DNA from: Geobacteraceae bacterium
GTDB lineage: Bacteria > Desulfobacterota > Desulfuromonadia > Geobacterales > Pseudopelobacteraceae
Length of the DNA stretch: 64,000 nt
NCBI GenBank assembly: GCA_025355965.1
Contig: JANXYR010000082.1
Location: 1-64,000, forward strand
Reading direction: 5' to 3'
In this document: one piece after another, positions 6,302 to 50,991 of the stretch
Numbering within the stretch: position 1 is the stretch's first letter
Layout of the letters: each line of letters starts with the position of its first letter
Notes under the pieces: model-generated
Seen by the model: the letters and a program-made list of their open reading frames with translations, nothing else
What the model was told of the DNA's origin: nothing
Database searches by the model: none
Program-made: the position numbers and the translations under genes

Positions 6302-6717
6302 GATATCTGTCTCAAACGAGTCAGCAGGGTGGCAAAACTGCTCTGCTCCGATATTTCTTCGATAACTTCGATCTCTTCGAGCATATCGATCTGCTTAATA
6401 AATGTCAGGCCTGCATCACTGTTTGACAACAGCAGGTATTCCCCAGACACCTCAACCAGCATAAGAGACTTCTTAGGCCCCAGGTAGCGCGTCTCTATCA
6501 GGCGGATATGTTTTGAAAGAAGCTGATTGCCGACCGGCAACCCTCTCATCAACTTACCGGAAAAATGCCACGTGATCAGGATCAGGCCGATAACCAAGGC
6601 AAGGGCCGCAATCATTTGCAGAAAACTTGCCAAAAAACTGAACTCCTGCCCTGAGCCCTCAACGGCAAACGCTACAGAGGGTAGTAAGAAAAGAAGTACA
6701 GAAGCCGCAACTTTCAC
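6298..6717 (-). CDS. fliO: flagellar biosynthetic protein FliO
   Basis: 139 residues. There is a signal-peptide-like N-terminus ([19 protein letters not shown]), one membrane segment around residues 32-52 ([19 protein letters not shown]) and a cytoplasmic domain with [23 protein letters not shown] cited in part, the FliO family signature. FliO acts as an assembly scaffold for the FliP ring. Overlaps fliN by 4 nt upstream and fliP by 4 nt downstream. Confidence 0.9.
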
Positions 6718-7013
6718 AAAATTTTCTCCACCCGCTCGTTAGGAGTAACGATATCCACCAGGCGGACACCAAACTTTTCGTTTACTACAACCGCTTCACC
6801 GCGAGCCACCAGCTTGGAGTTGACAAAAATATCCAACGGTTCACCGGCTAGTTTGGTCAACTCAACAACCGCACCCTGGTTAAGCTGAAGAATATCCTTG
6901 ACCAGCAGCTTGGTCCTCCCCAGCTCGACAGTCACCTGCAGGGGAATGTCAAGAATGAAATCGAGGTTTTTCTTGTCAGGTGACGTTTCGTTCGTTTCAG
7001 GTGTATCACTCAC
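6714..7013 (-). CDS. fliN: flagellar motor switch protein FliN
   Basis: 99 residues, a compact SpoA-domain FliN. After a short acidic leader, the SpoA core reads DIPLQVTVELGRTKLLVKDI, LQLNQGAVVELTKLAGEPLD, then VNSKLVARGEAVVVNEKFG and VRLVDIV, all family landmarks. FliN builds the lower C-ring with FliM and docks FliH for export. The start overlaps the fliM stop by 1 nt. Confidence 0.96.
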   Translation of the reverse strand: MSDTPETNETSPDKKNLDFILDIPLQVTVELGRTKLLVKDILQLNQGAVVELTKLAGEPLDIFVNSKLVARGEAVVVNEKFGVRLVDIVTPNERVEKIL

Positions 7014-8002
7014 TATTGCCCCCTAGTGCTGCAAATCTTGCTGATCTGAATTGCTTTGTTGCCATGCTTAATGCCGGGGACACCAAAGTATTTAGGTACC
7101 CCCTCGACTTTGACAATCATATCACTCGAACTGGCCTTATCCAGCATTATTGTATCTCCAGGGGCTAAATCCAACAATTCGCGAAGCGTGATACTGGCGT
7201 TTCCCATCTCTACTGTCGCTTCCATCGGGGCCTCCATCAGCTCCGAAGAGAGTCGGAAAGACCACTGAGGATCGATTGCCATCATGTCGAACTGCATACC
7301 AGTCTTGAGCTTGTCCCGAATCGGATCAATGGTCATGAACGGCACTGCAAACATCATATTGCCGGAGACATCATCAATCTGAATCTTGAGGGTCATTGTT
7401 ACGATCTGATATTCGGGTGGGACAATATTGACCAGGCGCGGGTTTGTTTCCATACGCAGCAGGCTCATATGGGTTGCATACAGCGGCGCCCAGGCTTTTT
7501 CAAAATCCTGCAGCGCATCTCCGACAATCTTTTCCATCAGACGCAGTTCAATTGAAGTGAACATACGATTGGCAATCGGCACCTTTGCGCTGCCTGCGCC
7601 GCCCAGGAGACTATCGACCAGTGACAGCACCAGAGTACTGTCAAAAGAAATCAGTGCAGCACCCTTGAGTGGTTCAATCTTAAAAATTCCCATGCAGACC
7701 GGTGTCGGCAGGGTTTGAAGAAAGTCATCGAATTTATAGGAACGGGCGCCGACTTTTTTTATTTCAACTGATTTACGCAGACGGTTGGAGAGATTGACAC
7801 GGTTGGAGCGAATAAAACTGTCGTAAATAATATCCAGATTAGGAACAGACCCCTTTTGGGCATCCGAGTTGACCAAATCGTAGTTTGCAACCGTTCCCTC
7901 TGCTTTTGAAAGCTCCTTTTCAGGTTCAATGCGACCCTCAAAGACAGCATTGAGCAGCGCTTCAATCTCGGCTTTTGAGAGGATTTTTTCCATTGCGGCC
8001 AC
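7013..8002 (-). CDS. fliM: flagellar motor switch protein FliM
   Basis: 329 residues. The N-terminal LSKAEIEALLNAV is the CheY-P binding peptide (LSQxEIDALL in enterics). The middle CheC-like domain contains IYDSFIRSNRVNLSNRLRKS and the SLLGGAG motif, and the C-terminal SpoA domain contains ASITLRELLDLAPGDTI. FliM is the C-ring component that receives the chemotaxis signal. The frame opens with GTG at 8002 (preceded by AGGT), and an ATG follows three codons later at 7993; either may be used. It starts 9 nt after fliL. Confidence 0.96.
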   Translation of the reverse strand: MAAMEKILSKAEIEALLNAVFEGRIEPEKELSKAEGTVANYDLVNSDAQKGSVPNLDIIYDSFIRSNRVNLSNRLRKSVEIKKVGARSYKFDDFLQTLPTPVCMGIFKIEPLKGAALISFDSTLVLSLVDSLLGGAGSAKVPIANRMFTSIELRLMEKIVGDALQDFEKAWAPLYATHMSLLRMETNPRLVNIVPPEYQIVTMTLKIQIDDVSGNMMFAVPFMTIDPIRDKLKTGMQFDMMAIDPQWSFRLSSELMEAPMEATVEMGNASITLRELLDLAPGDTIMLDKASSSDMIVKVEGVPKYFGVPGIKHGNKAIQISKICSTRGQ

Positions 8003-39377: not shown

Positions 39378-39451
39378 CCAGCCCGAGAACCGCCTTGCCT
39401 GCTTGAGACGATTCTGTTATTTTCGTGCAAATCACAAGAAAGTTGACCGGT

Positions 39452-40210
39452 ATGAAGATCACTATTTTAGGGTGTGGCACCTCCACAGGAGTGCCGATGG
39501 TTGGCTGTAACTGTAGGGTCTGCAGCTCAGGCGACCCTCAGGACAAGCGTACACGCGCATCACTCCTGATCAGCTATAACGATCATATCGTGCTGATTGA
39601 TACATCCACCGATTTGAGAGAACAGGCGCTGCGGCAGCATATCCGGCGCATTGATGCCGTACTTTTCACTCACGCGCACGCTGACCATGTCAATGGCATT
39701 GATGACCTGCGTGGTTTTCACTTTCTCCACAAAGAGATTATCCCCTGCTTTGCGTCAAGGGCAACCCTCGAAACATTGCTTAGCGGCTTCAGTTACATTT
39801 TTAACGAGAATCAAGGTTCCGGCTACACACCATTGCTGGCTGCTCACGAGATCTCTGCCCCGTTTGAGCTGTTCGGAAAAACGGTCATTCCGATTCCACT
39901 GCTGCATGGCAAAACCTTCTCGTTTGGTTACCGTATCGGGGATTTTGCATACCTGACCGATTGCAATGCTATTCCGGAACCGTCGTTAGAGCTGCTGCAG
40001 GGGTTGGAAATAATGGTAATTGACGGATTGCGCTGGACAGAGCACCCTTTTCATTTCAATATTACGGGAGCAATTGCTGCCGCCAGACAGATAAAAGCCA
40101 CCCGCACAATTATGACCCATCTTACCCATGAAATCGCATATTCTGAAAGAAACAAGCTACCATCAGGATTTGAATTGGCGTACGACGGTATGGAGTTCAA
40201 TCTGCAGTAA
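39452..40210 (+). CDS. MBL-fold metallo-hydrolase (PhnP-like)
   Basis: The start is ATG 39452 (MKITILGCGTSTGVPM); an upstream in-frame start at 39425 lacks conservation. 252 residues. The metal motif HAHADHVNGIDDLR is present, with downstream His in LLHGKTFSFGYRIG, YLTDCNAIPE and THLTHE. The opening LGCGTSTGVP with Cys residues in CNCRVCSSGD is typical of phosphoribosyl cyclic phosphodiesterase-like enzymes. Substrate unknown. Confidence 0.88.
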   Translation: MKITILGCGTSTGVPMVGCNCRVCSSGDPQDKRTRASLLISYNDHIVLIDTSTDLREQALRQHIRRIDAVLFTHAHADHVNGIDDLRGFHFLHKEIIPCFASRATLETLLSGFSYIFNENQGSGYTPLLAAHEISAPFELFGKTVIPIPLLHGKTFSFGYRIGDFAYLTDCNAIPEPSLELLQGLEIMVIDGLRWTEHPFHFNITGAIAAARQIKATRTIMTHLTHEIAYSERNKLPSGFELAYDGMEFNLQ

Positions 40211-40239
40211 TTCCCAGTTTCCAAGTTGAGGAGAAGGTG

Positions 40240-42078
40240 ATGCACAAAGACATTCGGCTGCACGGCATGATGGGAGAGCAGACAGAGTATTTTGTCATGG
40301 TAGTCGGCAACGATGCCTACCAGCGCTATTTCTTCAACATCGTCCAGGAAGAGGATCAGCTGCGCATCTTTTCACCCGGCAACGAAATGATTATTTCACC
40401 GGAGGGGATCCGTTATCAAGGCAACGGCGGCAATTTTTGTGAATATATGTTCGGAGTGGATCAACCGGCATCCGACCTGGCCAAACCGGAAATTATCAAC
40501 CGCCTGGTTATGTACGGGGCTCACTCCAACGAAGAAGGTACGGTCCGTTTCAGTGATCGTACTTCAGGCTCTGAAACGTACGACAATATTTTTTTTGAAG
40601 GAAATGCTGTCTGTAACTATTTTATTTTTGTCCACTCCAATCTGTTGTCGCGCAAGCTGAAAAGCCAGCAGGAAGAGCTGGTCAAACGGCTCGGCAAGAG
40701 TATCAAGCGCTCTGAGGCCGTGGGGGACGAGCGTGACGATGCTCTTATTTCCGAACTGTACCCGTTATTGGGCGATGACTCCTCCCAGCTGTTTTTGGTC
40801 AAGTTAATCCATCGCCATCATCGTGAATACCGTGATCTGTTTCGAAGTTTCTATTTCAAGAACAAAAAAATATCTGACGAAGATTACGTTCGCCTGGTTA
40901 CTGTCGCTACGACCTATAAAATTGATCGTTATCAGCAGGAACGCATCAGAATAGATGCCATGTACCGCAGTCCGGCAAACAAACGGATTGTAGACGAATA
41001 CCGAAACATCCTTCTGACATGCAATGCCAAGGGAGAAATCAACAACCTCGACAATGCCCGCCTGACGCGCCTGAAAACGTTGTCAGTCCGCAACAAAATT
41101 CCGGGGGCTCTGTTTTATACTCTGGATGAGATGCTAAAAAAGGGGCGTAATCTTAAAAATGATCAGGAGCCTGACTATATCGCTGCCACCCGCGAAATAT
41201 TGGAAGGGATATTTTTTCGGGAGATCGAGATTGAAAGCCGTATTGATCGGGCTGATATGCTCAAGCTGATCCAGGGCAAGAAAAGGGCGATGGAAAACAG
41301 GGATCATTCCTACGACCAGCTAATGTTGGATGCCAGCAAGGAGTGTGATGAAAAGATCAGGGATGGCGCCGATTCATCTCTACTTGACGGCTTCTCCTAT
41401 GTAATCACCTATCTGGATCGTTTTGACACTGTTTCCAACCTTGTCAGCCAGCTGGCTTTCATGGAAAACGTCAAGATCAACGAAGAGATGCTGCGCGGGC
41501 TGCTGGAGCATAAGGCCGCCTTTGACAATCTGCATGATGACTGCTTTCATGAGCTTTTTATACGGGAGCTGTTTGCTAATGCTTATCTTGGAAGTTTTGG
41601 TCGTCGCAAGGTTAAAACCCTCATGGAAGGCCTGATAGCGATTGAGACGCGGTGGTCAACGATCGAAGATCTGCACTTCAAATTGACCAAAATTGATCAG
41701 GAGGAGCGCATTTTAATTGTCCTTCTGGAGCATGTTCGCGATCGAATCCGTAATTTTTACTCCAAGTTCACCACAAAGGCTGATCAGGAAGCATTGCGCC
41801 GGGAAGTTGTCGAGGAACTAAAAACAAAGAAGCTCCTTAGCGCCGATATCCCGGATCATCTCTTTAACGAAACCATCTTTACTATCAAGAAAGAGGCCAT
41901 GTATCTGCATTCGCTATTGCCACAGATCATAGCGGAACGTAACGTCGGATTGAGAGAAGATTTTCTTGAAAACTCAGGTCTTGACCGGTTTTATGTTGAA
42001 GAACTGGAACGAGAGTATTACGAAAAAAACGGTCTGAACATAGCAGGATTGTACGAGATCAGAAAAGGGCTAAGCTGA
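40240..42078 (+). CDS. TIGR04442-like conserved protein, 612 aa
   Basis: Starts at ATG 40240 with GAGGAGAAGGTG upstream; the preceding GTG at 40237 is a less likely start. No signal peptide or membrane segment. N-terminal 120 residues are beta-rich with conserved VGNDAYQRYFFNIVQEEDQL; the remainder is mainly helical with charged heptads. I recall this as the TIGR04442 family of Deltaproteobacteria, function unknown. Position next to flgM and a sigma-54 activator suggests a motility or signalling context, but this is only proximity. Confidence 0.7.
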   Translation: MHKDIRLHGMMGEQTEYFVMVVGNDAYQRYFFNIVQEEDQLRIFSPGNEMIISPEGIRYQGNGGNFCEYMFGVDQPASDLAKPEIINRLVMYGAHSNEEGTVRFSDRTSGSETYDNIFFEGNAVCNYFIFVHSNLLSRKLKSQQEELVKRLGKSIKRSEAVGDERDDALISELYPLLGDDSSQLFLVKLIHRHHREYRDLFRSFYFKNKKISDEDYVRLVTVATTYKIDRYQQERIRIDAMYRSPANKRIVDEYRNILLTCNAKGEINNLDNARLTRLKTLSVRNKIPGALFYTLDEMLKKGRNLKNDQEPDYIAATREILEGIFFREIEIESRIDRADMLKLIQGKKRAMENRDHSYDQLMLDASKECDEKIRDGADSSLLDGFSYVITYLDRFDTVSNLVSQLAFMENVKINEEMLRGLLEHKAAFDNLHDDCFHELFIRELFANAYLGSFGRRKVKTLMEGLIAIETRWSTIEDLHFKLTKIDQEERILIVLLEHVRDRIRNFYSKFTTKADQEALRREVVEELKTKKLLSADIPDHLFNETIFTIKKEAMYLHSLLPQIIAERNVGLREDFLENSGLDRFYVEELEREYYEKNGLNIAGLYEIRKGLS

Positions 42079-42120
42079 GTTTTGGCTGCTCTACTGCGTC
42101 CGAATTGGATATAAACGTAC

Positions 42121-42148
42121 TAAAGTTTCATATAGTTTATACCGATGT
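42121..42148 (+). promoter_or_regulatory. sigma-28 (FliA)-like promoter of flgM
   Basis: TAAAGTTT at 42121-42128 is an exact -35 match to the sigma-28 consensus, and ACCGATGT at 42141-42148 fits GCCGATAA at the core CCGAT. The spacer is 12 rather than 11. It lies 44 nt before the flgM ATG. Confidence 0.6.
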
Positions 42149-42192
42149 ACATACCACTACCTAAGTAACAGAAGAGTTTTGCGGAGTTTGTT

Positions 42193-42462
42193 ATGAAAAT
42201 AGATGATCGTGTTTCAAATTACATGGCATTATTAAACAGTGAAGCGGTCAAGCCTGCTGTTCAATCAGGGGGCGCATTAGGATCACGCGCAACTGCCCCA
42301 TCCGCCGTTGAAGTTGACCTTTCTTCGGCAGCCGTTCAGCTGGCAGAAGATGAGGCCCGACGCGAGAGGCTGAATGTTATACGGCAGCAGCTGGCAGAAG
42401 GTTCCTATAATATCAGCGGTAAAGATGTTGCCGATAAAATGTTAAACATACTCAAAGGATAA
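42193..42462 (+). CDS. flgM: anti-sigma-28 factor FlgM
   Basis: 89 residues. The C-terminal half has VDLSSAAVQLAEDEARRERL, NVIRQQLAEGSYNISGKDVA and DKMLNILKG, the FlgM helices that hold FliA. The N-terminus is disordered, as in all FlgMs, which lets it pass through the export apparatus. GCGGAG precedes the ATG. The sigma-28-like promoter fits the usual feedback loop. Confidence 0.9.
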   Translation: MKIDDRVSNYMALLNSEAVKPAVQSGGALGSRATAPSAVEVDLSSAAVQLAEDEARRERLNVIRQQLAEGSYNISGKDVADKMLNILKG

Positions 42463-42517
42463 CATGGCGGTCGGCCATCATTTAAACTTCAAATCCTGAT
42501 ACAGCTCCATTTCCTCC

Positions 42518-42546
42518 TTGACCAAGCATACCTCTCGCGCTACATT
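42518..42546 (+). promoter_or_regulatory. putative sigma-70 promoter of the GAF/AAA+ regulator
   Basis: TTGACC (42518-42523), 17 bp, TACATT (42541-42546). A TATAAT at 42556-42561 is an alternative -10 without an equally good -35. Confidence 0.4.
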
Positions 42547-42599
42547 CCTGCTGTGTATAATTTATACTCATACGTGTAAATCAACTACAGGCAGGAGAT

Positions 42600-45419
42600 A
42601 TGATGCCCACCGAATCCAGGCTTAAAGACTTTCAGGCAGCAATCGTTACTTACGGAAAAGAAAATCTCGGGGAGCTGTTGTATGCTCTTGACGAGAACAC
42701 CAAACAATTGTCGGGTTGCGAACAGGTCCGTATATATCTCGAAGACCTGACACGCGGGGCTCTTGCCTGTGCCCACGCAACCGGACTGTTCGATAAAGAA
42801 CTTGTCGAGACGAGCTTTCCGATCATTTCTTCTGAAGCTATCGTTTCAAGCGTCTTTGTCAGCCAAATTCCGGCAAATTTCAAGCTCTCCGAAGTTGACA
42901 AAAACTCCCCTGACCATGAATTTGCAGTTCGCTTCAAGCTCCGCTCCAGTTACGTCATGCCAATTGTCAGTCATGGAAAGTCAATCGGAGTCCTCTGCAT
43001 CGACCAGGACCACCCTGGCGAGGTGTTAAGCAGCCGTGCAAAAAGGCAGTTATCAGAGCTGACTGCAATTGTGGCCGACCACCTTGACCAGGCCAGAATC
43101 TATCATCAGCAAGTCAGCCTCGCCAGACGACTTGAGGAGTTCAAGGCGCGTGAGGCGGCCGGAATGATGGTCAGATCAGCGGTTAAACTTATTGAGAAGG
43201 TCTCTCTGGCGGCAGTACTTGTACCAAGCCAACAGGAGGGTGTCTCGGGAGCCCTGGAAACCCTTGCCAGCTACTCGGCAGATGAGACTCTGAAAAAAAA
43301 GTATGATCAACTGGGAGCACTGGATCTTCGCAAGGGGATGTCATTGATTTCCAACTATATTAACGACCAGGGGTTTATCACTGATGACCGCCTGTTAAAG
43401 CCGCTTTTCATCCCTGATCTGACTCAACACAATTTGCAGAAACGCGCTTTAACCGAATCTCTAGAGCTCCACTCGCTATACGTAGTCCCAAGATTCAACC
43501 AGGAAACCCGCCGCATAATATGTCTACTTAATTACTACTCTCATGACCTGTACCAGTTCAGCGATTTTGAAATGGGGTTGCTGCAGACTCATGCCGAAAT
43601 GGTAGAGAGGGTCATAAGCGAGGTTGGCGGGGAACATCTGGAAATCCGCGTCCTGTCCGAAATAAGTGATCTACTGAACGAGAGAACTGAGAGCCTTCAG
43701 CCGTTCTTAACCAGGGTCCTTTCCAAGGCAACGGAACTGATCGGTGCTGACACCGGCAGCATCGCCGTTGTGAACGAACGAGACGGCACAAAATGGCTGG
43801 TGGTGGAGGACGAGAATGGCACAATCATCGGCGCAAAGAACAAGGAGTGGCTGAAGAAATATATCCCGCCGTTAGTGGTCGGCGGCAATGAGCTGCCAAA
43901 AAATGAGCGAAGTCTGACCGGATATGTCGCTTTTACCAAACAGCCAAAAATAACCGCCAGGGTTGAATCCGAACTGCAGGGAGAAGGCTTTCATCGTTCC
44001 ATGAGCACCCTGCTGAAAAGCGAAATTGCTGTTCCGATTATTTGTGATGATGAGGTCATTGCCGTAATTTGCCTCAACTCGCTCCAGTACGATTACTTCC
44101 GTGAAGAGCATCGCCGTATCCTGCAAATTATCGGCTCCCTGACGGCCCGTCACGTATCAGATTTACAGCGCATTGAGCGCCTGCAGGGTGAGGTAAACCG
44201 GCTCACAACTGATGTTGCCTATAAGGATCCGCATGTTTCCTCCTATCGACTGGGCAATATCATCGGCAACAGCCAGAAATCTCAGGAGGTTGTTGACTTC
44301 ATTAACACTGTATCGCCGCCCCTCTTCAATCGAATTGTTTTCTGGTCACAGAACATTCTGCAGGAAGCAACAATTGGGCTCCCATCTATTTTGGTAACCG
44401 GCCAGACCGGGTCGGGCAAGGAGTTCTTTTTTAATAACCTCTACAACAAAATGAATGAGCTGTATCGCCGCGATATCAATCCCGGCGGTGAATTGCCGGT
44501 CAAAAAAACAAATATAGCGGCGTATTCCGGCGACTTGACCTATTCGGAACTATTTGGTCACAAAAAAGGCGCTTTTACAGGAGCTTATACCGATAGGCGC
44601 GGGATTTTGGAGGAAACCATAGGCGGCATCGTCTTTCTGGATGAAATCGGTGACGCCGACCCCAAAACGCAGGTCCAACTACTACGCTTTCTGGACAATG
44701 GCGGTTTCATGCGCCTCGGTGACAACACAGAACGCTACAGCAGGGTTCTGCTTGTTGCAGCAACCAATAAAAATCTGGCCGATGAGATAGCTGCCGGTCG
44801 TTTTCGCGAGGATCTATACCACCGGCTTTCCGAGCTTTCGATACGCCTGCCATCACTCAACGAACGCCGCGAGGATATACCTGACCTTTCGGTTCATTTT
44901 CTGGGGAAACTCTACCGCACCTACCGTGCTGAGGGCGATACAGGGGAGACACCTCCATACCTGTCCAAAGAAGCCAAAGAGATTCTGATGCGTCACAGTT
45001 ACAAGGGCAACATCAGGGAACTGCGTAGCATTCTGCTGCGGGCGCTGTTTTTTAGACAAAAAAGCGTCATAACTGGTGAAGCAATTAGCCTGGCCATTGC
45101 CGGGACGGGTTGTCTGGAAGAACGCACTCCGCCATCAGTTACCCATGATCTGGACCAGCGACTGGCGAGTGAAATAATTAACAAGATCACTACCGGTGGT
45201 GATTTCTGGGCAGATGTCTATGAGCCGTTCTCGCGCAGCGATATTTCACGCGAAACGGTGCGCCTGGTAATTGAGAACGCACGGGCTAAGGCTGGTAAAA
45301 CCATGCCGGCTGTGGCGCGTTATTTGAAAGCGATGACAAATGATGTAGAGAAAGAGGAGGAGCAACGACAGCTGTTCCGATTTAAGAATTTTCTCTACAA
45401 GACGGTCAAGATGGGATAA
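42600..45419 (+). CDS. sigma-54-dependent activator with GAF domains
   Basis: 939 residues. About 1-180, 200-340 and 345-520 are GAF-like sensory modules (for instance SYVMPIVSHGKSIGVLCID and ALTESLELHSLYVVPRFN). The AAA+ domain follows: Walker A GQTGSGKE at about 601-608, the sigma-54 contact loop GAFTGA at about 657-662 (HKKGAFTGAYTDRR), Walker B IVFLDEIGDAD and the arginine finger region FREDLYHRL. There is no clear Fis HTH at the C-terminus; RETVRLVIENARAKAGKTMP may be a remnant helix, so DNA binding is unclear. GGCAGGAGAT precedes tandem ATGs. Next to flgM, it may control motility, but no target is shown. Confidence 0.88.
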   Translation: MMPTESRLKDFQAAIVTYGKENLGELLYALDENTKQLSGCEQVRIYLEDLTRGALACAHATGLFDKELVETSFPIISSEAIVSSVFVSQIPANFKLSEVDKNSPDHEFAVRFKLRSSYVMPIVSHGKSIGVLCIDQDHPGEVLSSRAKRQLSELTAIVADHLDQARIYHQQVSLARRLEEFKAREAAGMMVRSAVKLIEKVSLAAVLVPSQQEGVSGALETLASYSADETLKKKYDQLGALDLRKGMSLISNYINDQGFITDDRLLKPLFIPDLTQHNLQKRALTESLELHSLYVVPRFNQETRRIICLLNYYSHDLYQFSDFEMGLLQTHAEMVERVISEVGGEHLEIRVLSEISDLLNERTESLQPFLTRVLSKATELIGADTGSIAVVNERDGTKWLVVEDENGTIIGAKNKEWLKKYIPPLVVGGNELPKNERSLTGYVAFTKQPKITARVESELQGEGFHRSMSTLLKSEIAVPIICDDEVIAVICLNSLQYDYFREEHRRILQIIGSLTARHVSDLQRIERLQGEVNRLTTDVAYKDPHVSSYRLGNIIGNSQKSQEVVDFINTVSPPLFNRIVFWSQNILQEATIGLPSILVTGQTGSGKEFFFNNLYNKMNELYRRDINPGGELPVKKTNIAAYSGDLTYSELFGHKKGAFTGAYTDRRGILEETIGGIVFLDEIGDADPKTQVQLLRFLDNGGFMRLGDNTERYSRVLLVAATNKNLADEIAAGRFREDLYHRLSELSIRLPSLNERREDIPDLSVHFLGKLYRTYRAEGDTGETPPYLSKEAKEILMRHSYKGNIRELRSILLRALFFRQKSVITGEAISLAIAGTGCLEERTPPSVTHDLDQRLASEIINKITTGGDFWADVYEPFSRSDISRETVRLVIENARAKAGKTMPAVARYLKAMTNDVEKEEEQRQLFRFKNFLYKTVKMG

Positions 45420-45489: not shown

Positions 45490-48400
45490 CTACCATGTCT
45501 TTATGCCCGGTCCGCTATGGCATCCACTCACAACAATAGTGCCGTGGGTGCATGTTGCGCCGCTGCCGCGCGGAGTTTTCGGCACAATACCAGTAGTAGT
45601 CCGGATAACATTTATCTGGCTGGAACCGCTTGTCATAGTTTTGTTGGGGCCATGATTTACTCCGGCACCGGAACCGGATGCAACAGTACCAGCGGCTATA
45701 GTACCGGTGAACCTTCCGGTACTGGTCACATTGGGATGGCATGTTCCGCATGTCGCCCCCTGATGACTTGGGTGCCGGGCATTACTGTTACTGCCCCTGA
45801 TATTTGGCCAAGTTGTGCTTGTAGGTGCTGCTGCAGTGCTGGTGCCACCGCTCCCGTGACATGACTTGCAGTTGCCAAGGCCATTGCCTGCAATCAGCGG
45901 GCTGGCAAGAGTATGGCACGACATGCAGTCTGGTGCCGTTCCTGCAGCAGCAGGATATGGTGAAGCGCTTGTGCCCAGGCTATGACAACCACCGGCCCCG
46001 GACAAGCAGGAGGTCGATGCTGTAGCGTTATGGGTAAGGTAAGGTACGCTGTGGACTACAACACTGGAAACTTCCACTAGACCATTGATGTGTTTTGACT
46101 TGTCCACAAATATGTTTGCGTAACTGTCACCGACCGTGTTGATGTTTGAGTGACAACTACACGTGGTTCCAATTGTCGCCGTACCGGGGAAACCAGCCGG
46201 GATGGTAACTGCCGGATGACCAGATACTGTAGAAGGCGGAAAACCATGACAGGTGCTGCAGGCAGACACCGACATAGTTCCTGGCAAGAAAGTGGTGCTC
46301 CAGACGGGGGTTCTGTTAGTCCCGGTGATGTCGCCGCCTGACATCTTGGCACCATGGCAATAAATGTTGGAACACTGCCCGGTGGTGTCATTGAACGTTG
46401 ATGCTGTTCCGCCACCAGCTATCAGAAGAGCACCGCTGCCGAAAGCGACAGGATTGGCTCGCCCGGTAGCGGAGCGGGCTTTGGACCGGGCCTGGTGATC
46501 AACTGTGCCGACACCAAGACCTGTATGACAATCGGCACAGGCAAGTGTCATGGTGGCCACTTTTGTTGAGCTAGCATGCGATCCATGAACAGCGGTAATA
46601 TTTGGATAACTGCTCCCGGATGGCGGAGATGCGTGACAGGACGTGCATCCACTCTGCGTCGTCACCGGACTTGTCAGGTGGCAATTCTGACAGCCTGGCG
46701 GCACTACTGAAGCTCCCGTTACCGCATCCTGATGGCATCCCAGGCAGGTGGAAGTAAAGGTGTGGCTTAGGTACGGGACAGCATGTGGTGCTATACCGGT
46801 TGTTACATCGATAACGCCGTTAATATGTTTGGTAGGAACAGTGAAACCTGTATTTGTCAAGTTCACATGAGTATGACAGACCACACAGGCTGTGGCGGAA
46901 GTGACGCCGGTGTGTGCGCTGTTTGCCGGCGGGAAACCATGACAAGTACCGCAACCCTGCAGATAGCCTGTCTGGCCCCATTGCGGAGCTTTGTTAATGC
47001 CACCGACAAGTGATGAGCCGTGACAATAGGTATTGGTACAAGCTCCGCTATAGCTGGGACTGAGTCCACCTGTTTTTGCCAACGTGCCGAAGACAACCGG
47101 GTTTGCCTGAACGGTAGCTGACCTAAGTCTGGATCGCTCAAGATGGTCAACAGTGCCAAGCCCCAGGCCGCTGTGACATTCACTACAGGTATTTGAGACA
47201 TTCAGGGCCATGTGCGATGCATGAGACCCCGCGCTGTTGGGATAGGTAACCCCACTAGGCGGATTTGTGTGGCAAGAGATACAATTGTTCGGGTTTGCCT
47301 GCGGGTCGAGCATGTGACAGTTCTGGCACCCTGGTGGCTTGGTAGTATTTGCGGCAATCTGATGGCATCCCAGACAGAAGGAAAAGTTGCTCCTGGCTGT
47401 TGCATTATGGTTATTGTATGGGACGCCATGCGTCGCAACACCTGGCCCACTAGGATGGCAACTTCTGGTTTGACTCAGTCCATTGGAAAAAGAGAAACTG
47501 AAACAACTTGGAGCTGCAGCAAGTGGACTTACTCGCCCCTGGCTAACATCATGGCACAGCACACAGGCATTGGCTCTGTTTCCAGCTGTGCGATGAGAAT
47601 AGATACCGCTCCCTTGCCAATCAGTTGGATGCGCTTTGGCAAAAGTGTGGCAGCTGGAACAGGCACTTGTTTTTGTGCCATCAGCCAAAGTTACTCCATT
47701 AAATGCAGTTGAACCGGTGGCGCCATGGCATGCCTGGCAAACGGTCAAGTCTTTCTTTGCTTCACCTCCATGAAGTGACGGTGGAATTGTAGCGGAGGGC
47801 GCATATGGAATCTGGTGGAAATGGCAAAGAGTATTATTGAAACAGCCGGCCAGAGTCATCGTTGCCGGAAATGGCGGTTTGACCGTTGAGTTCTCGCCAG
47901 CAGTATGGCAGATAGCGCAGGTTCCAACGTTGGCTGTATCAGTACTGCTGTGTGTTGGTGTGCCGACTATCCTGGAGAACCAGGGTTTTCTGGAATGTGG
48001 TGCATAAACACCACTACCGTGACAAGCGGCGTTATTAAAGCAGGTTACCGCAGCGCCGTTGATGAATGCAGCCCCATGACATGGTTGGCATGAGGAGAAA
48101 CCGGTATCCGAAGCTGGTGCTTTTTTGGCCTCTGTACCGTGCTGGTTTGGAGCTTTCCAGCCATCAAGATGGCCCGTTACTGCGTGGCAAAGAGTGTTGT
48201 TGAAACAGCCGGTTAAACCTATTTTGTCGCCAGCCCGCGGCCCCCGCGACGAGTTGGCTCCACCAGTATGGCATACGGCACATTGGCCGGCATTGCTGAC
48301 ATCGCTTGAAACATGAGAAGTACCACCTGATGTAGATCTCCACGGACTGGCCGGATGCGGTGCAGCAACGTTAGTTCCATGACAGCCGACTGTATTTAGA

Positions 48401-49185
48401 CAGCTCTGTTCGGCAGACCCACCATCATATCCGGCACCATGACATTGAGTACAGGCAATGAAGCCATTATCTCCCCCTGATACTGACTTGGCGGCCGCAC
48501 CATGCTCGAATGATGCCTTCCATCCGGTGGCATGCCCTTCTACTCCATGACAAAGCGTATTGTTGAAACAGCCGGGGGCTGTCCCCACAGGAGGCGTGAT
48601 CGATGGTTTCCGAATCGAGTTGGCCCCGGCACTGTGGCAGACGGCGCAACCGGTTGCGTTACTAGCATCAGAGTTCGTATGAGTGCGGCCACCAATATTC
48701 GATCGCCAAGGCTTGGGTGAATGTGGGGCCATGACACCCGCACCGTGACACCCGGCACTGTTCAGGCAGGTTTTTTTGGCGCTGCCCCCGGCAAAGTCTG
48801 AGCCATGACATACCTGGCAGTGTGCAATACCGTCTTTACCCGCTGCCAAGGCTTTGGCTGATGATCCGTGGGCATTCGGTGCAGACCACCCTGCCGGATG
48901 GCCCGACGGACCTGCCGGGTGACAGTTTATACCGCTGAGTGAAGCACTGAAGCAGCTCACGCCACTTATACCACCATTCAGATTTTTGCCATGGCATTCA
49001 AAACATGCGCTGGGGCCTGCCTGGTATCTCGCAGGGTGTAGCCCCCCATCGCCCGCTGTTGTCCATCCTGACGGGTGCTTACCTGTAACCGGATTAATAC
49101 TGGTAGCCTTTTCGTTACGTTTGGAACAGGCAAAGAGGGACAGGGTTAACACCGTGAAAAGAACCGTCTTAATCATGTAATTCAT
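45490..49185 (-). CDS. giant multiheme c-type cytochrome lipoprotein, 1231 aa
   Basis: ATG at 49185 with GGGAGGATC 8 nt upstream. The N-terminus has a lipoprotein signal (LFTVLTLSLFAC, lipid Cys20). I count 24 CXXCH sites. Others are two CX4CH (CTNTYCH, CSNIYCH, each followed by a CXXCHGFPP segment like the Geobacter TIGR01904 motif), six CX5CH (CFNNTLCH type), one CX6CH, two CX9CH, one CX14CH and one CXCH. Residues 123-455 are three tandem units of about 121 residues, each CXXCH-CX5CH-CXXCH-CX5CH. If most sites are used this is a heme-rich outer-surface conductor. It is the last gene of the barrel-cytochrome operon. Confidence 0.93.
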   Translation of the reverse strand: MNYMIKTVLFTVLTLSLFACSKRNEKATSINPVTGKHPSGWTTAGDGGLHPARYQAGPSACFECHGKNLNGGISGVSCFSASLSGINCHPAGPSGHPAGWSAPNAHGSSAKALAAGKDGIAHCQVCHGSDFAGGSAKKTCLNSAGCHGAGVMAPHSPKPWRSNIGGRTHTNSDASNATGCAVCHSAGANSIRKPSITPPVGTAPGCFNNTLCHGVEGHATGWKASFEHGAAAKSVSGGDNGFIACTQCHGAGYDGGSAEQSCLNTVGCHGTNVAAPHPASPWRSTSGGTSHVSSDVSNAGQCAVCHTGGANSSRGPRAGDKIGLTGCFNNTLCHAVTGHLDGWKAPNQHGTEAKKAPASDTGFSSCQPCHGAAFINGAAVTCFNNAACHGSGVYAPHSRKPWFSRIVGTPTHSSTDTANVGTCAICHTAGENSTVKPPFPATMTLAGCFNNTLCHFHQIPYAPSATIPPSLHGGEAKKDLTVCQACHGATGSTAFNGVTLADGTKTSACSSCHTFAKAHPTDWQGSGIYSHRTAGNRANACVLCHDVSQGRVSPLAAAPSCFSFSFSNGLSQTRSCHPSGPGVATHGVPYNNHNATARSNFSFCLGCHQIAANTTKPPGCQNCHMLDPQANPNNCISCHTNPPSGVTYPNSAGSHASHMALNVSNTCSECHSGLGLGTVDHLERSRLRSATVQANPVVFGTLAKTGGLSPSYSGACTNTYCHGSSLVGGINKAPQWGQTGYLQGCGTCHGFPPANSAHTGVTSATACVVCHTHVNLTNTGFTVPTKHINGVIDVTTGIAPHAVPYLSHTFTSTCLGCHQDAVTGASVVPPGCQNCHLTSPVTTQSGCTSCHASPPSGSSYPNITAVHGSHASSTKVATMTLACADCHTGLGVGTVDHQARSKARSATGRANPVAFGSGALLIAGGGTASTFNDTTGQCSNIYCHGAKMSGGDITGTNRTPVWSTTFLPGTMSVSACSTCHGFPPSTVSGHPAVTIPAGFPGTATIGTTCSCHSNINTVGDSYANIFVDKSKHINGLVEVSSVVVHSVPYLTHNATASTSCLSGAGGCHSLGTSASPYPAAAGTAPDCMSCHTLASPLIAGNGLGNCKSCHGSGGTSTAAAPTSTTWPNIRGSNSNARHPSHQGATCGTCHPNVTSTGRFTGTIAAGTVASGSGAGVNHGPNKTMTSGSSQINVIRTTTGIVPKTPRGSGATCTHGTIVVSGCHSGPGIKTW

Positions 49186-49198
49186 GGATGATCCTCCC

Positions 49199-49678
49199 TC
49201 AGCGATGGCATGCTATGCAGCGTTCATTATTGGCTCTGCCGTGACAACGGTAGCAGCTGGCCGGATCAAGTTTTCCTTCAATCTTGTGTAACGTCATAAA
49301 ATTACCACGATGCTGGAATTCACGGTCCGGGCGATCACCATAAACGGTGGATGGCTTCATTTCAACCTTGTTGGTGTGGCAGTCATTGCAGAAGGAGCTT
49401 TTATGACAGGTAGAGCAGAGACGGTCATCCGACGCAGCGTAAAAACGATGGTTCTTGACGAAAGATTGTGTGTGACTGAATGCATTGAAGGGCTTCATTG
49501 TTCCTTTTTGCTGGTCTTCATGACATTCGGAGCAATTTACCTGTTGCCCGACAGCCAGTGTTTCCGGATGCGAAGAGGGGAGACCGGGGACGGTTTTCAT
49601 CTGGGCACAGGAAGCCACTACTATGCCTACGAGCCCGGCTACTGCAAGGAGTAAAAACCTAATAATTGTTTTTCTCAT
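49199..49678 (-). CDS. five-heme c-type cytochrome lipoprotein
   Basis: The start is ATG 49678 (MRKTIIRFLLLAV), with GGAGGAAAGAA upstream and overlapping the barrel stop as ATGA; a longer frame into the barrel gene is not conserved. 159 residues with lipobox VVASC (Cys24). Heme sites are CSECH, CSTCH, CNDCH, CYRCH and CIACH. Small lipid-anchored cytochromes beside a barrel form the inner part of porin-cytochrome conduits in Geobacter (established for the omb-oma-omc and ext clusters). It lies 13 nt before the giant cytochrome gene. Confidence 0.92.
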   Translation of the reverse strand: MRKTIIRFLLLAVAGLVGIVVASCAQMKTVPGLPSSHPETLAVGQQVNCSECHEDQQKGTMKPFNAFSHTQSFVKNHRFYAASDDRLCSTCHKSSFCNDCHTNKVEMKPSTVYGDRPDREFQHRGNFMTLHKIEGKLDPASCYRCHGRANNERCIACHR

Positions 49679-50991
49679 TTCTTTCCTCCAGTAACTTTGT
49701 GGGTCATGTTGTAGGTCAAGCGGAGCAAAGCTTTGGCTTCTTCGATAAATTGAGGATTCCTGCCATAACTTAAGTCTCCGGAAAATGCCAAGGCAGGACT
49801 GATGTGATAACCAAGCGAGGTTGTCGCTTCCCAAGCCCGGCTTTCTTCATAAATACTATTTTTAAAAAAATCGCCAAGGACGTCGATTGCAGCAAAGTAA
49901 CCCTTGGTATCGCGCATGACATAGCAGCGCAGTTCATGGTAGGAGGCCGTAGGATTGGCTCCGACAGCGAATCCTTGCCCGGCGTTCAGATAATGGTAGC
50001 CTATGCCGCCGCGAATGGAGTTGTCTTTATAGTTAACCCTGACTTCTCCGCCAAAGCGGCTCGCAGTCCCAAATTCGCGGGTATATTTTTTGTAATCGGC
50101 GACTACTTCAAGGTTTTTGTTGACTTCATGCAATAAACTCAGCCCAGCCGAACTGGACTTGTCATTGGGATTGAGGACGGCAGCTGAAAAGGAGGTCCAG
50201 GGGTAGATGTAACTCTGGTCATGCTGTTGGTTGAATTCACCCGTCAGTACCAATCGCGGGACAAGCTTGATATTTAGCAGATAACTATGCTCTGCAAACT
50301 GCTTGGTTTCAGGGTTGTAGCTGCTGTGCCCGATGATGTCGACCTTTTGGAGTGGAGTTATCCAGACATCACCCCCGACCCTCCGGTAGTCTCTTGTAAC
50401 GTGCGTAACAAGTGTTGGAGCAGCACTTTCAAAGACTCCCGACAAGCCAACCTCAAGTAAACCTTTATAGCGGTAATTGACGCGGCCACCGGAAACTACG
50501 TCCCCCCTGCCATCGCTGTTTTCACCAACAATGTTGGTTGCATGTACGGTTGCCCCTCCGAAAGCGGACAGGCCCAATCCCAGCGGCAAGTCGGTACGAG
50601 AGCTGATACCGTCTATATGCTCGTTGACGACTCCTTCATGAATAAATAATCTTCCTGCACGGATAGTGGTGTTTGCCTGTTTGAGGCGGTACTGGAGGTA
50701 ACCATAGGTGAGATTCCCGGCGGTTTTATCGTCATTGTAGCTATTACCGGCCAAGTCAGCACGCCCCCAACCATAGAAGTGAAGTGAAAGATTGCCATCG
50801 CCAAGCTTAGCGGCAGTCAAGCCGAGGAATTGGGTGGCAGGGAGAAGCGTCTCCTTTTTTGCGCCCTCTATATCACTCTGGCCAATACCAAGGATAGTTC
50901 TGGAGTCAACAGTTACATCTGCTGCCATGACACCGGTGGGTAGAGTGAAAAGTGATGCTGCGCAAAGAATGGTGCAACATGTTTTCTTCAT
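49675..50991 (-). CDS. outer-membrane beta-barrel of porin-cytochrome conduit
   Basis: The start is ATG 50991 (MKKTCCTILCAASLF) with AGGAGT upstream; an 11-residue extension is possible but less likely. 438 residues with signal peptide ending VMAAD. Alternating strands with aromatic girdles occur throughout (LSLHFYGWGRADLAG, YGYLQYRLKQANTTIRAGRL, LNIKLVPRLVLTGEF), as in the Geobacter conduit barrels (ExtB/ExtI/OmbB types). It would hold cytochromes across the outer membrane. First gene of the three-gene operon. Confidence 0.85.
   Translation of the reverse strand: MKKTCCTILCAASLFTLPTGVMAADVTVDSRTILGIGQSDIEGAKKETLLPATQFLGLTAAKLGDGNLSLHFYGWGRADLAGNSYNDDKTAGNLTYGYLQYRLKQANTTIRAGRLFIHEGVVNEHIDGISSRTDLPLGLGLSAFGGATVHATNIVGENSDGRGDVVSGGRVNYRYKGLLEVGLSGVFESAAPTLVTHVTRDYRRVGGDVWITPLQKVDIIGHSSYNPETKQFAEHSYLLNIKLVPRLVLTGEFNQQHDQSYIYPWTSFSAAVLNPNDKSSSAGLSLLHEVNKNLEVVADYKKYTREFGTASRFGGEVRVNYKDNSIRGGIGYHYLNAGQGFAVGANPTASYHELRCYVMRDTKGYFAAIDVLGDFFKNSIYEESRAWEATTSLGYHISPALAFSGDLSYGRNPQFIEEAKALLRLTYNMTHKVTGGKK

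What the first reader, a model, noticed from the sequence alone, without database searches (positions are those of the whole stretch)
45490..49185. Giant cytochrome with repeated CX5CH and other non-standard heme motifs
Seen: 24 CXXCH and about 13 atypical CXnCH sites (n = 1, 4, 5, 6, 9, 14), including six CX5CH in a regular CXXCH-CX5CH-CXXCH-CX5CH module repeated three times at a 121-residue period. Known: CX4CH is in the Geobacter TIGR01904 motif and CX14CH in OmcZ; expansions need care as heme attachment normally wants CXXCH. The regular placement of CX5CH suggests function rather than decay. If all sites bind heme, the total would be up to about 37.
Basis: partly seen in the sequence, partly recalled or inferred. 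Interest (0 to 1): 0.65.

Follow-up and report, generated by a model that had tools for sequence, protein, structure and literature searches.

The report
Giant cytochrome with spacer-variable heme sites
A Geobacter-type bacterium encodes a surface "electron antenna" protein that probably holds 37 hemes rather than the 24 a standard motif search would count, because 13 of its heme sites use unusual spacings that relatives swap with the standard one while always keeping the heme-binding residues.

Summary
The heme-site reading is well supported by sequence; no biochemistry exists. Every mature cysteine belongs to one of 37 CXnCH sites; the only other one is the lipobox cysteine. All six CX5CH, the first CX9CH and the CX14CH are kept in 9 of 9 orthologues. 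In the conserved part there are 23 sites and exactly 23 invariant non-motif histidines, one distal ligand each. The strongest evidence is a natural experiment: at the same aligned site, homologues carry spacers of 2, 3, 4, 5, 6, 9 or 12 residues, with at least 11 changes on a tree built without the spacers. The gene is the third in a porin / 5-heme lipoprotein / surface cytochrome operon found across the order. In that slot the surface cytochrome ranges from 6 to 37 hemes, while the 5-heme partner never has an atypical site. This is a giant, modular member of the known Geobacter porin-cytochrome (Pcc) kind. Atypical motifs in Pcc surface cytochromes were reported in 2014; whether CX>4CH sites bind heme was left open. 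Structure predictions failed.

The parts
45490..49185 (-). Giant surface multiheme cytochrome, 1231 aa, 37 CXnCH sites
49126..49128 (-). Lipobox cysteine (residue 20, LFAC-S): N-terminal lipid anchor, the only Cys not in a CXnCH site
   Evidence: a lipobox-type Cys is seen in the homologues
48454..48819 (-). Module 1 (residues 123-244): CXXCH-CX5CH-CXXCH-CX5CH, four invariant non-motif His
48091..48453 (-). Module 2 (residues 245-365)
47740..48090 (-). Module 3 (residues 366-482)
48919..48954 (-). CX9CH site 2 (CFSASLSGINCH)
   Evidence: 9 of 9 orthologues
48745..48768 (-). CX5CH site 4 (CLNSAGCH); spacer-variable site of module 1
48547..48570 (-). CX5CH site 6 (CFNNTLCH); spacer nearly fixed at 5
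48379..48402 (-). CX5CH site 8 (CLNTVGCH); spacer-variable site of module 2
48184..48207 (-). CX5CH site 10 (CFNNTLCH)
48019..48042 (-). CX5CH site 12 (CFNNAACH); spacer-variable site of module 3
47821..47844 (-). CX5CH site 14 (CFNNTLCH)
47455..47505 (-). CX14CH site 18
   Evidence: 9 of 9 orthologues
47020..47040 (-). CX4CH site 23 (CTNTYCH), TIGR01904-type
46354..46374 (-). CX4CH site 30 (CSNIYCH), TIGR01904-type
46150..46161 (-). CX1CH site 32 (CSCH); CXXCH in five of eight orthologues
45982..46008 (-). CX6CH site 33 (CLSGAGGCH)
45517..45552 (-). Last site 37, CX9CH (CTHGTIVVSGCH); the least conserved
49199..49678 (-). Partner: 159-aa lipoprotein with five CXXCH; its ATG overlaps the porin stop codon (ATGA), and it ends 13 nt before the giant starts
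49675..50991 (-). Partner: porin-like outer-membrane protein, conserved across the order
   Evidence: fold not confirmed

Best explanation
The protein is the outer-surface, lipid-anchored subunit of a Geobacterales porin-cytochrome electron conduit. Electrons reach the 5-heme periplasmic-side lipoprotein held in the porin, cross the outer membrane, and enter a surface chain of about 37 c-type hemes, each fixed by two Cys and a proximal His and capped by a distal His, which delivers them to extracellular acceptors. The 13 atypical sites are real heme sites whose inter-cysteine loop has been lengthened or shortened in evolution. The chain grows by whole modules, the four-heme CXXCH-CXnCH-CXXCH-CX5CH unit being present in 0 to 3 copies. 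Shown: motif content, lack of orphan Cys, one distal His per site in the conserved part, spacer interconversion, operon, and size variation in one slot. Inferred: covalent heme at each atypical site, surface display, electron flow, and a role for the loops in contacting acceptors.
For: 75 Cys = 74 in 37 sites + lipobox Cys. All CX5CH, the first CX9CH and the CX14CH kept in 9/9 orthologues. 23 sites and 23 invariant non-motif His in residues 1-725. Over 60 homologues: 1057 sites, 355 atypical, only 9 orphan Cys of 2123; non-motif His = 0.35 + 1.07 x canonical + 1.17 x atypical, R2 0.98. Same site with spacers 2-12, at least 11 changes on a spacer-free module tree; 2/4 at site 16 and 1/2 at site 32. 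Nearly only synonymous change at atypical sites in the closest comparisons. Operon conserved in about 60 loci across the order; 5-heme partner always CXXCH. OmcZ heme 1 is bound through a 14-residue loop (PMC9473688).
Against: No structure or biochemistry; AlphaFold models unusable (pLDDT 30). The porin fold is not confirmed by family or PDB search. Proteins in the regression are related, and canonical and atypical counts rise together. Modules were picked by CH spacing, so their Cys and proximal His invariance is partly by construction. Wolinella uses a dedicated synthase for CX15CH (PMC10663686), whereas this genome has only two ResB-CcsB pairs. Site 37 is lost or altered in two of eight orthologues.
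Confidence: 0.86

Rival explanations
1. Only the 24 CXXCH bind heme; the atypical pairs are disulfides or structural remnants.
For: Heme attachment normally needs CXXCH, and rare alternatives such as CX15CH had dedicated synthases (PMC10663686).
Against: Distal His are present one per site including atypical ones; CX2CH and CX3-12CH interchange at one site; the motif His is kept, which a disulfide would not need; decay would leave orphan Cys, but only 9 of 2123 are orphan.
Confidence: 0.07
2. Atypical sites bind heme, but spacer length is neutral drift that a tolerant System II synthase allows, with no functional loop. (A sub-reading of the best explanation, so the two confidences are not exclusive.)
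For: Spacers of 2, 3, 4, 5, 6, 9 and 12 occur at one site; only two ResB-CcsB pairs for seven spacer lengths in one protein.
Against: The second site of each module is nearly always CX5CH with a conserved FNNTL-type loop (58 of 58 such loops); long loops occur only in the surface subunit, never in the 5-heme partner; removing the OmcZ loop impaired reduction of soluble acceptors (stated in PMC11208441).
Confidence: 0.4
3. The giant is a periplasmic electron capacitor and not a surface subunit.
For: Many hemes; localisation rests on sequence only.
Against: Lipobox with Ser at +2 and position after a porin and a 5-heme lipoprotein in a coupled operon; the same place is taken by homologues of 6-37 hemes, as in Pcc clusters (PMC4245776).
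Confidence: 0.08

Closest known systems
Geobacter porin-cytochrome (Pcc) conduits: OmbB-OmaB-OmcB, ExtABCD, ExtEFG, ExtHIJKL, GM18_3461/3467 clusters (PMC4245776, PMC6148476)
   Same: Porin gene + periplasmic multiheme cytochrome + outer-membrane cytochrome in one cluster; a 5-heme periplasmic partner and atypical CX3-15CH motifs confined to the outer-membrane subunit are reported for some of them.
   Different: 37 sites (24 typical) against at most 15 typical motifs listed in 2014; tandem four-heme modules with CX5CH; direct homology to a named cluster could not be tested.
TIGR01904 / PF09698 (Geobacter CxxxxCH...CxxCH domain)
   Same: Two CX4CH-containing stretches in the C-terminal half match above cut-off.
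   Different: The CX5CH, first CX9CH and CX14CH sites lie outside it; the first 200 residues match no NCBIfam model.
OmcZ of Geobacter sulfurreducens
   Same: A site with a 14-residue spacer; heme bound there in the solved structure (PMC9473688).
   Different: No sequence match in the PDB; OmcZ has 8 hemes and forms a filament; here a lipid-anchored conduit subunit with many atypical sites.
PCC3 extracellular cytochromes (PMC5566968, PMC10734462)
   Same: Giant, repeat-built surface cytochromes with 10-63 heme sites beside a porin.
   Different: PCC3 has a periplasmic cytochrome of about 21-27 hemes and an inner-membrane protein; here a 5-heme lipoprotein and no such gene next to it.

Membership tests
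Geobacter-type Pcc conduit | Gene cluster of porin-like protein, periplasmic multiheme cytochrome and outer-membrane multiheme cytochrome | tested here: met
   Three-gene operon, conserved over the order
Geobacter-type Pcc conduit | Porin is an outer-membrane beta-barrel | tested here: inconclusive
   AlphaFold pLDDT 30 with many predicted strands; 3 of 25 homologues weakly match PF13505; no PDB match
Geobacter-type Pcc conduit | Surface cytochrome is a secreted lipoprotein | tested here: met
   Signal peptide and lipobox LFAC-S by inspection; a lipobox-type Cys in the homologues
Geobacter-type Pcc conduit | Sequence homology to a characterised cluster (OmcB, Ext) | not tested
[quoted passage not shown]
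   Needs deletion mutants or proteoliposomes
TIGR01904 domain proteins | Score above curated cut-off | tested here: met
   69.9 bits against 27, C-terminal part only
OmcZ | Sequence relationship to OmcZ | tested here: not met
   No PDB chain matched by phmmer, none convincing by profile of the N-terminal part
[quoted passage not shown]
   The partner has five CXXCH; neighbours are LeuA and a sigma-54 regulator

The most novel reading that the evidence does not exclude
In Geobacterales the cytochrome c synthase accepts almost any spacing between the two heme cysteines (1 to about 15 residues) at defined sites, and surface conduit cytochromes use this freedom as an evolvable trait: loop length at a fixed heme, and number of four-heme modules, vary to match extracellular acceptors while the trans-membrane part stays the same.
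Probability: 0.4. Interest if true: 0.78.

Novelty: new variant of a known kind. Interest (0 to 1): 0.62.

Why it matters
Heme counts of surface cytochromes are usually made from CXXCH, sometimes up to CX4CH or CX5CH. In this family 355 of 1057 sites (a third) would be missed by CXXCH alone. A 2014 survey left open whether CX>4CH sites bind heme; here one site exists as CX2CH, CX3CH, CX4CH, CX5CH, CX6CH, CX9CH and CX12CH in relatives, a ready-made series for testing it. It also bears on how two System II synthase pairs can serve seven spacer lengths in one protein, when Wolinella has a separate synthase for CX15CH.

Tried and rejected
AlphaFold2 of residues 21-725 (7 sequences) and of the porin (6 sequences): mean pLDDT 30 each, so no fold search was run. 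PDB by sequence with single proteins and profiles: nothing for the giant, the 5-heme protein or the porin; only weak tetraheme cytochrome c hits with the N-terminal profile. A sigma-54 promoter upstream of the porin: matches in the window no more than chance (45 against 41), none in the gap before the porin. Decay: rejected by orphan-Cys count, codon changes and His budget. A dedicated synthase per motif: not supported, two ResB-CcsB pairs plus a CcsB-like gene beside hemA. No paper holding the term CX5CH with heme was found in the held library. A guess from memory that the G. sulfurreducens counterpart is GSU1786-1787 could not be tested.

Full report
WHAT IS THERE. The reported ORF (45490-49185, minus) encodes 1231 aa with a signal peptide and lipobox LFAC-S. 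It has 37 CH sites: 24 CXXCH and 13 with other spacers (CX5 six times, CX9 twice, CX4 twice, CX14, CX6 and CX1 once each). All 75 Cys are used: 74 in the 37 sites and the lipobox Cys20. There are 40 further His. Shuffled residues give about 5 CH sites and leave at least 49 Cys unpaired. The module CXXCH-CX5CH-CXXCH-CX5CH starts at residues 123, 245 and 366.

OPERON. Upstream on the same strand lie a porin-like gene and a 159-aa lipoprotein with five CXXCH. The lipoprotein's ATG overlaps the porin stop codon, and the giant starts 13 nt after the lipoprotein. Further upstream is leuA. A sigma-54 regulator of the GPMC cluster converges from the other side. In relatives with the window's gene order the same porin and 5-heme genes precede a cytochrome gene. 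The porin is found in 94 of 141 genomes of the order. I read the gene that follows in about 60 loci.

ARE THE ATYPICAL SITES HEME SITES? Five lines of evidence agree.

(1) Conservation. In nine orthologues (one of them partial) every CX5CH, the first CX9CH and the CX14CH keep both Cys and the His. Codon differences at atypical sites are 13 synonymous to 0 non-synonymous against the nearest orthologue and 21 to 1 against Oryzomonas japonica; the rest of the protein has 365 to 235 and 324 to 335.

(2) Ligand budget. Residues 1-725 hold 23 sites and exactly 23 invariant non-motif His (His122 is not invariant), one distal ligand per site if all 23 bind heme; the 14 CXXCH alone would leave nine unexplained.

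(3) Family-wide ledger. Across 60 homologues, 1057 sites (355 atypical) leave only 9 orphan Cys of 2123. Non-motif His rise by 1.07 per canonical and 1.17 per atypical site, R2 0.98. These proteins are related, so this is consistency and not an independent test.

(4) Spacer interconversion. The site that is CX5CH in the giant (sites 4, 8, 12), with conserved flanks followed by APH and W, is CX2CH in many homologues and CX3CH, CX4CH, CX6CH, CX9CH or CX12CH in others. On a tree of 75 modules built without the spacer residues the spacer changed at least 11 times; shuffled labels need about 30, so it is inherited but labile. Site 16 varies between 2 and 4 and site 32 between 1 and 2.

(5) Precedent. 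In OmcZ a heme is bound through a 14-residue loop (PMC9473688).

Covalent attachment itself is not shown here. The last site is altered in two of eight orthologues, so 35-37 is the safe range.

MODULAR SIZE. The surface cytochrome in this slot has 6, 8, 10, 12, 14-16, 19-24, 28-30 or 37 sites, with 0 to 3 copies of the four-heme module. Conduits that are nearly the same carry very different antennae: the window's conduit (37 sites) and that of L054 (16 sites) share about 84% porin identity and the same gene order. On the conduit tree the three-module long form needs at least 8 changes, which points to exchange or repeated loss; many forks are weakly supported. Modules 1, 2 and 3 of the long form make separate groups, so the triplication is older than the divergence of its carriers; L045 shows a recent extra duplication. 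The 5-heme partner has only CXXCH motifs in every locus, so atypical spacing is confined to the surface part.

HOW IT LIKELY WORKS. Periplasmic carriers load the 5-heme lipoprotein in the porin, which passes electrons to the membrane-proximal N-terminal hemes of the lipid-anchored giant. A chain of bis-His hemes carries them outward, and longer antennae hold more charge and reach further. Surface display, order of flow and the role of loops are inferred. Loops could shape contact with acceptors, as was stated for OmcZ (PMC11208441), or be neutral. The variable site argues for tolerance; the fixed CFNNTLCH-type site (58 of 58 with spacer 5; the pattern searched allowed other lengths) argues for function. 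The genome has System II with two ResB-CcsB pairs and a CcsB-like gene beside hemA, against seven spacer lengths in this one protein, so a separate synthase per motif, as in Wolinella (PMC10663686), is unlikely.

COMPARISON AND NOVELTY. It works like a Geobacter Pcc conduit and meets the gene-cluster and lipoprotein features; barrel fold and homology to named clusters remain inconclusive or untested. Atypical motifs in Pcc surface cytochromes were noted in 2014, with heme binding of CX>4CH left open (PMC4245776). A 2026 study of Geobacter cytochrome evolution kept, for its mutation-rate analysis, only homologues within two hemes of the reference (PMC12977616), so that analysis would not have covered this size series. 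I file it as a new variant of a known kind.

Noticed in passing
window 39425-45419: GPMC-system genes: MBL-fold hydrolase (NF038231), TIGR04442 protein, sigma-54 regulator (NF038230), convergent with the conduit operon and syntenic in several relatives.
   Followed up: partly
L051 from about 13400, L052 and L053 from about 14200 to the locus end: Downstream of the conduit lie further giant cytochromes with long runs of 2-2-4 spacing (TIGR01904-like arrays), e.g. 26 sites in 1101 aa.
   Followed up: no
L104 and L123: The surface cytochrome is split over two reading frames, either a frameshifted gene or an assembly error.
   Followed up: no
L058 (G051 porin, 6368-7689): The porin gene is read in two frames in a single-contig genome, although the operon is otherwise intact.
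   Followed up: no
L119, L120: Shortest surface subunits in this slot: 6 sites in about 200 aa, half or more of them atypical, resembling the 6-heme GM18_3461/3467 description.
   Followed up: no
L122 (G000:C18): The window's own genome has a second, more distant copy of this conduit (porin about 35% identical, surface cytochrome with 14 sites: 2 9 2 9 2 4 2 9 2 2 4 2 2 3).
   Followed up: partly
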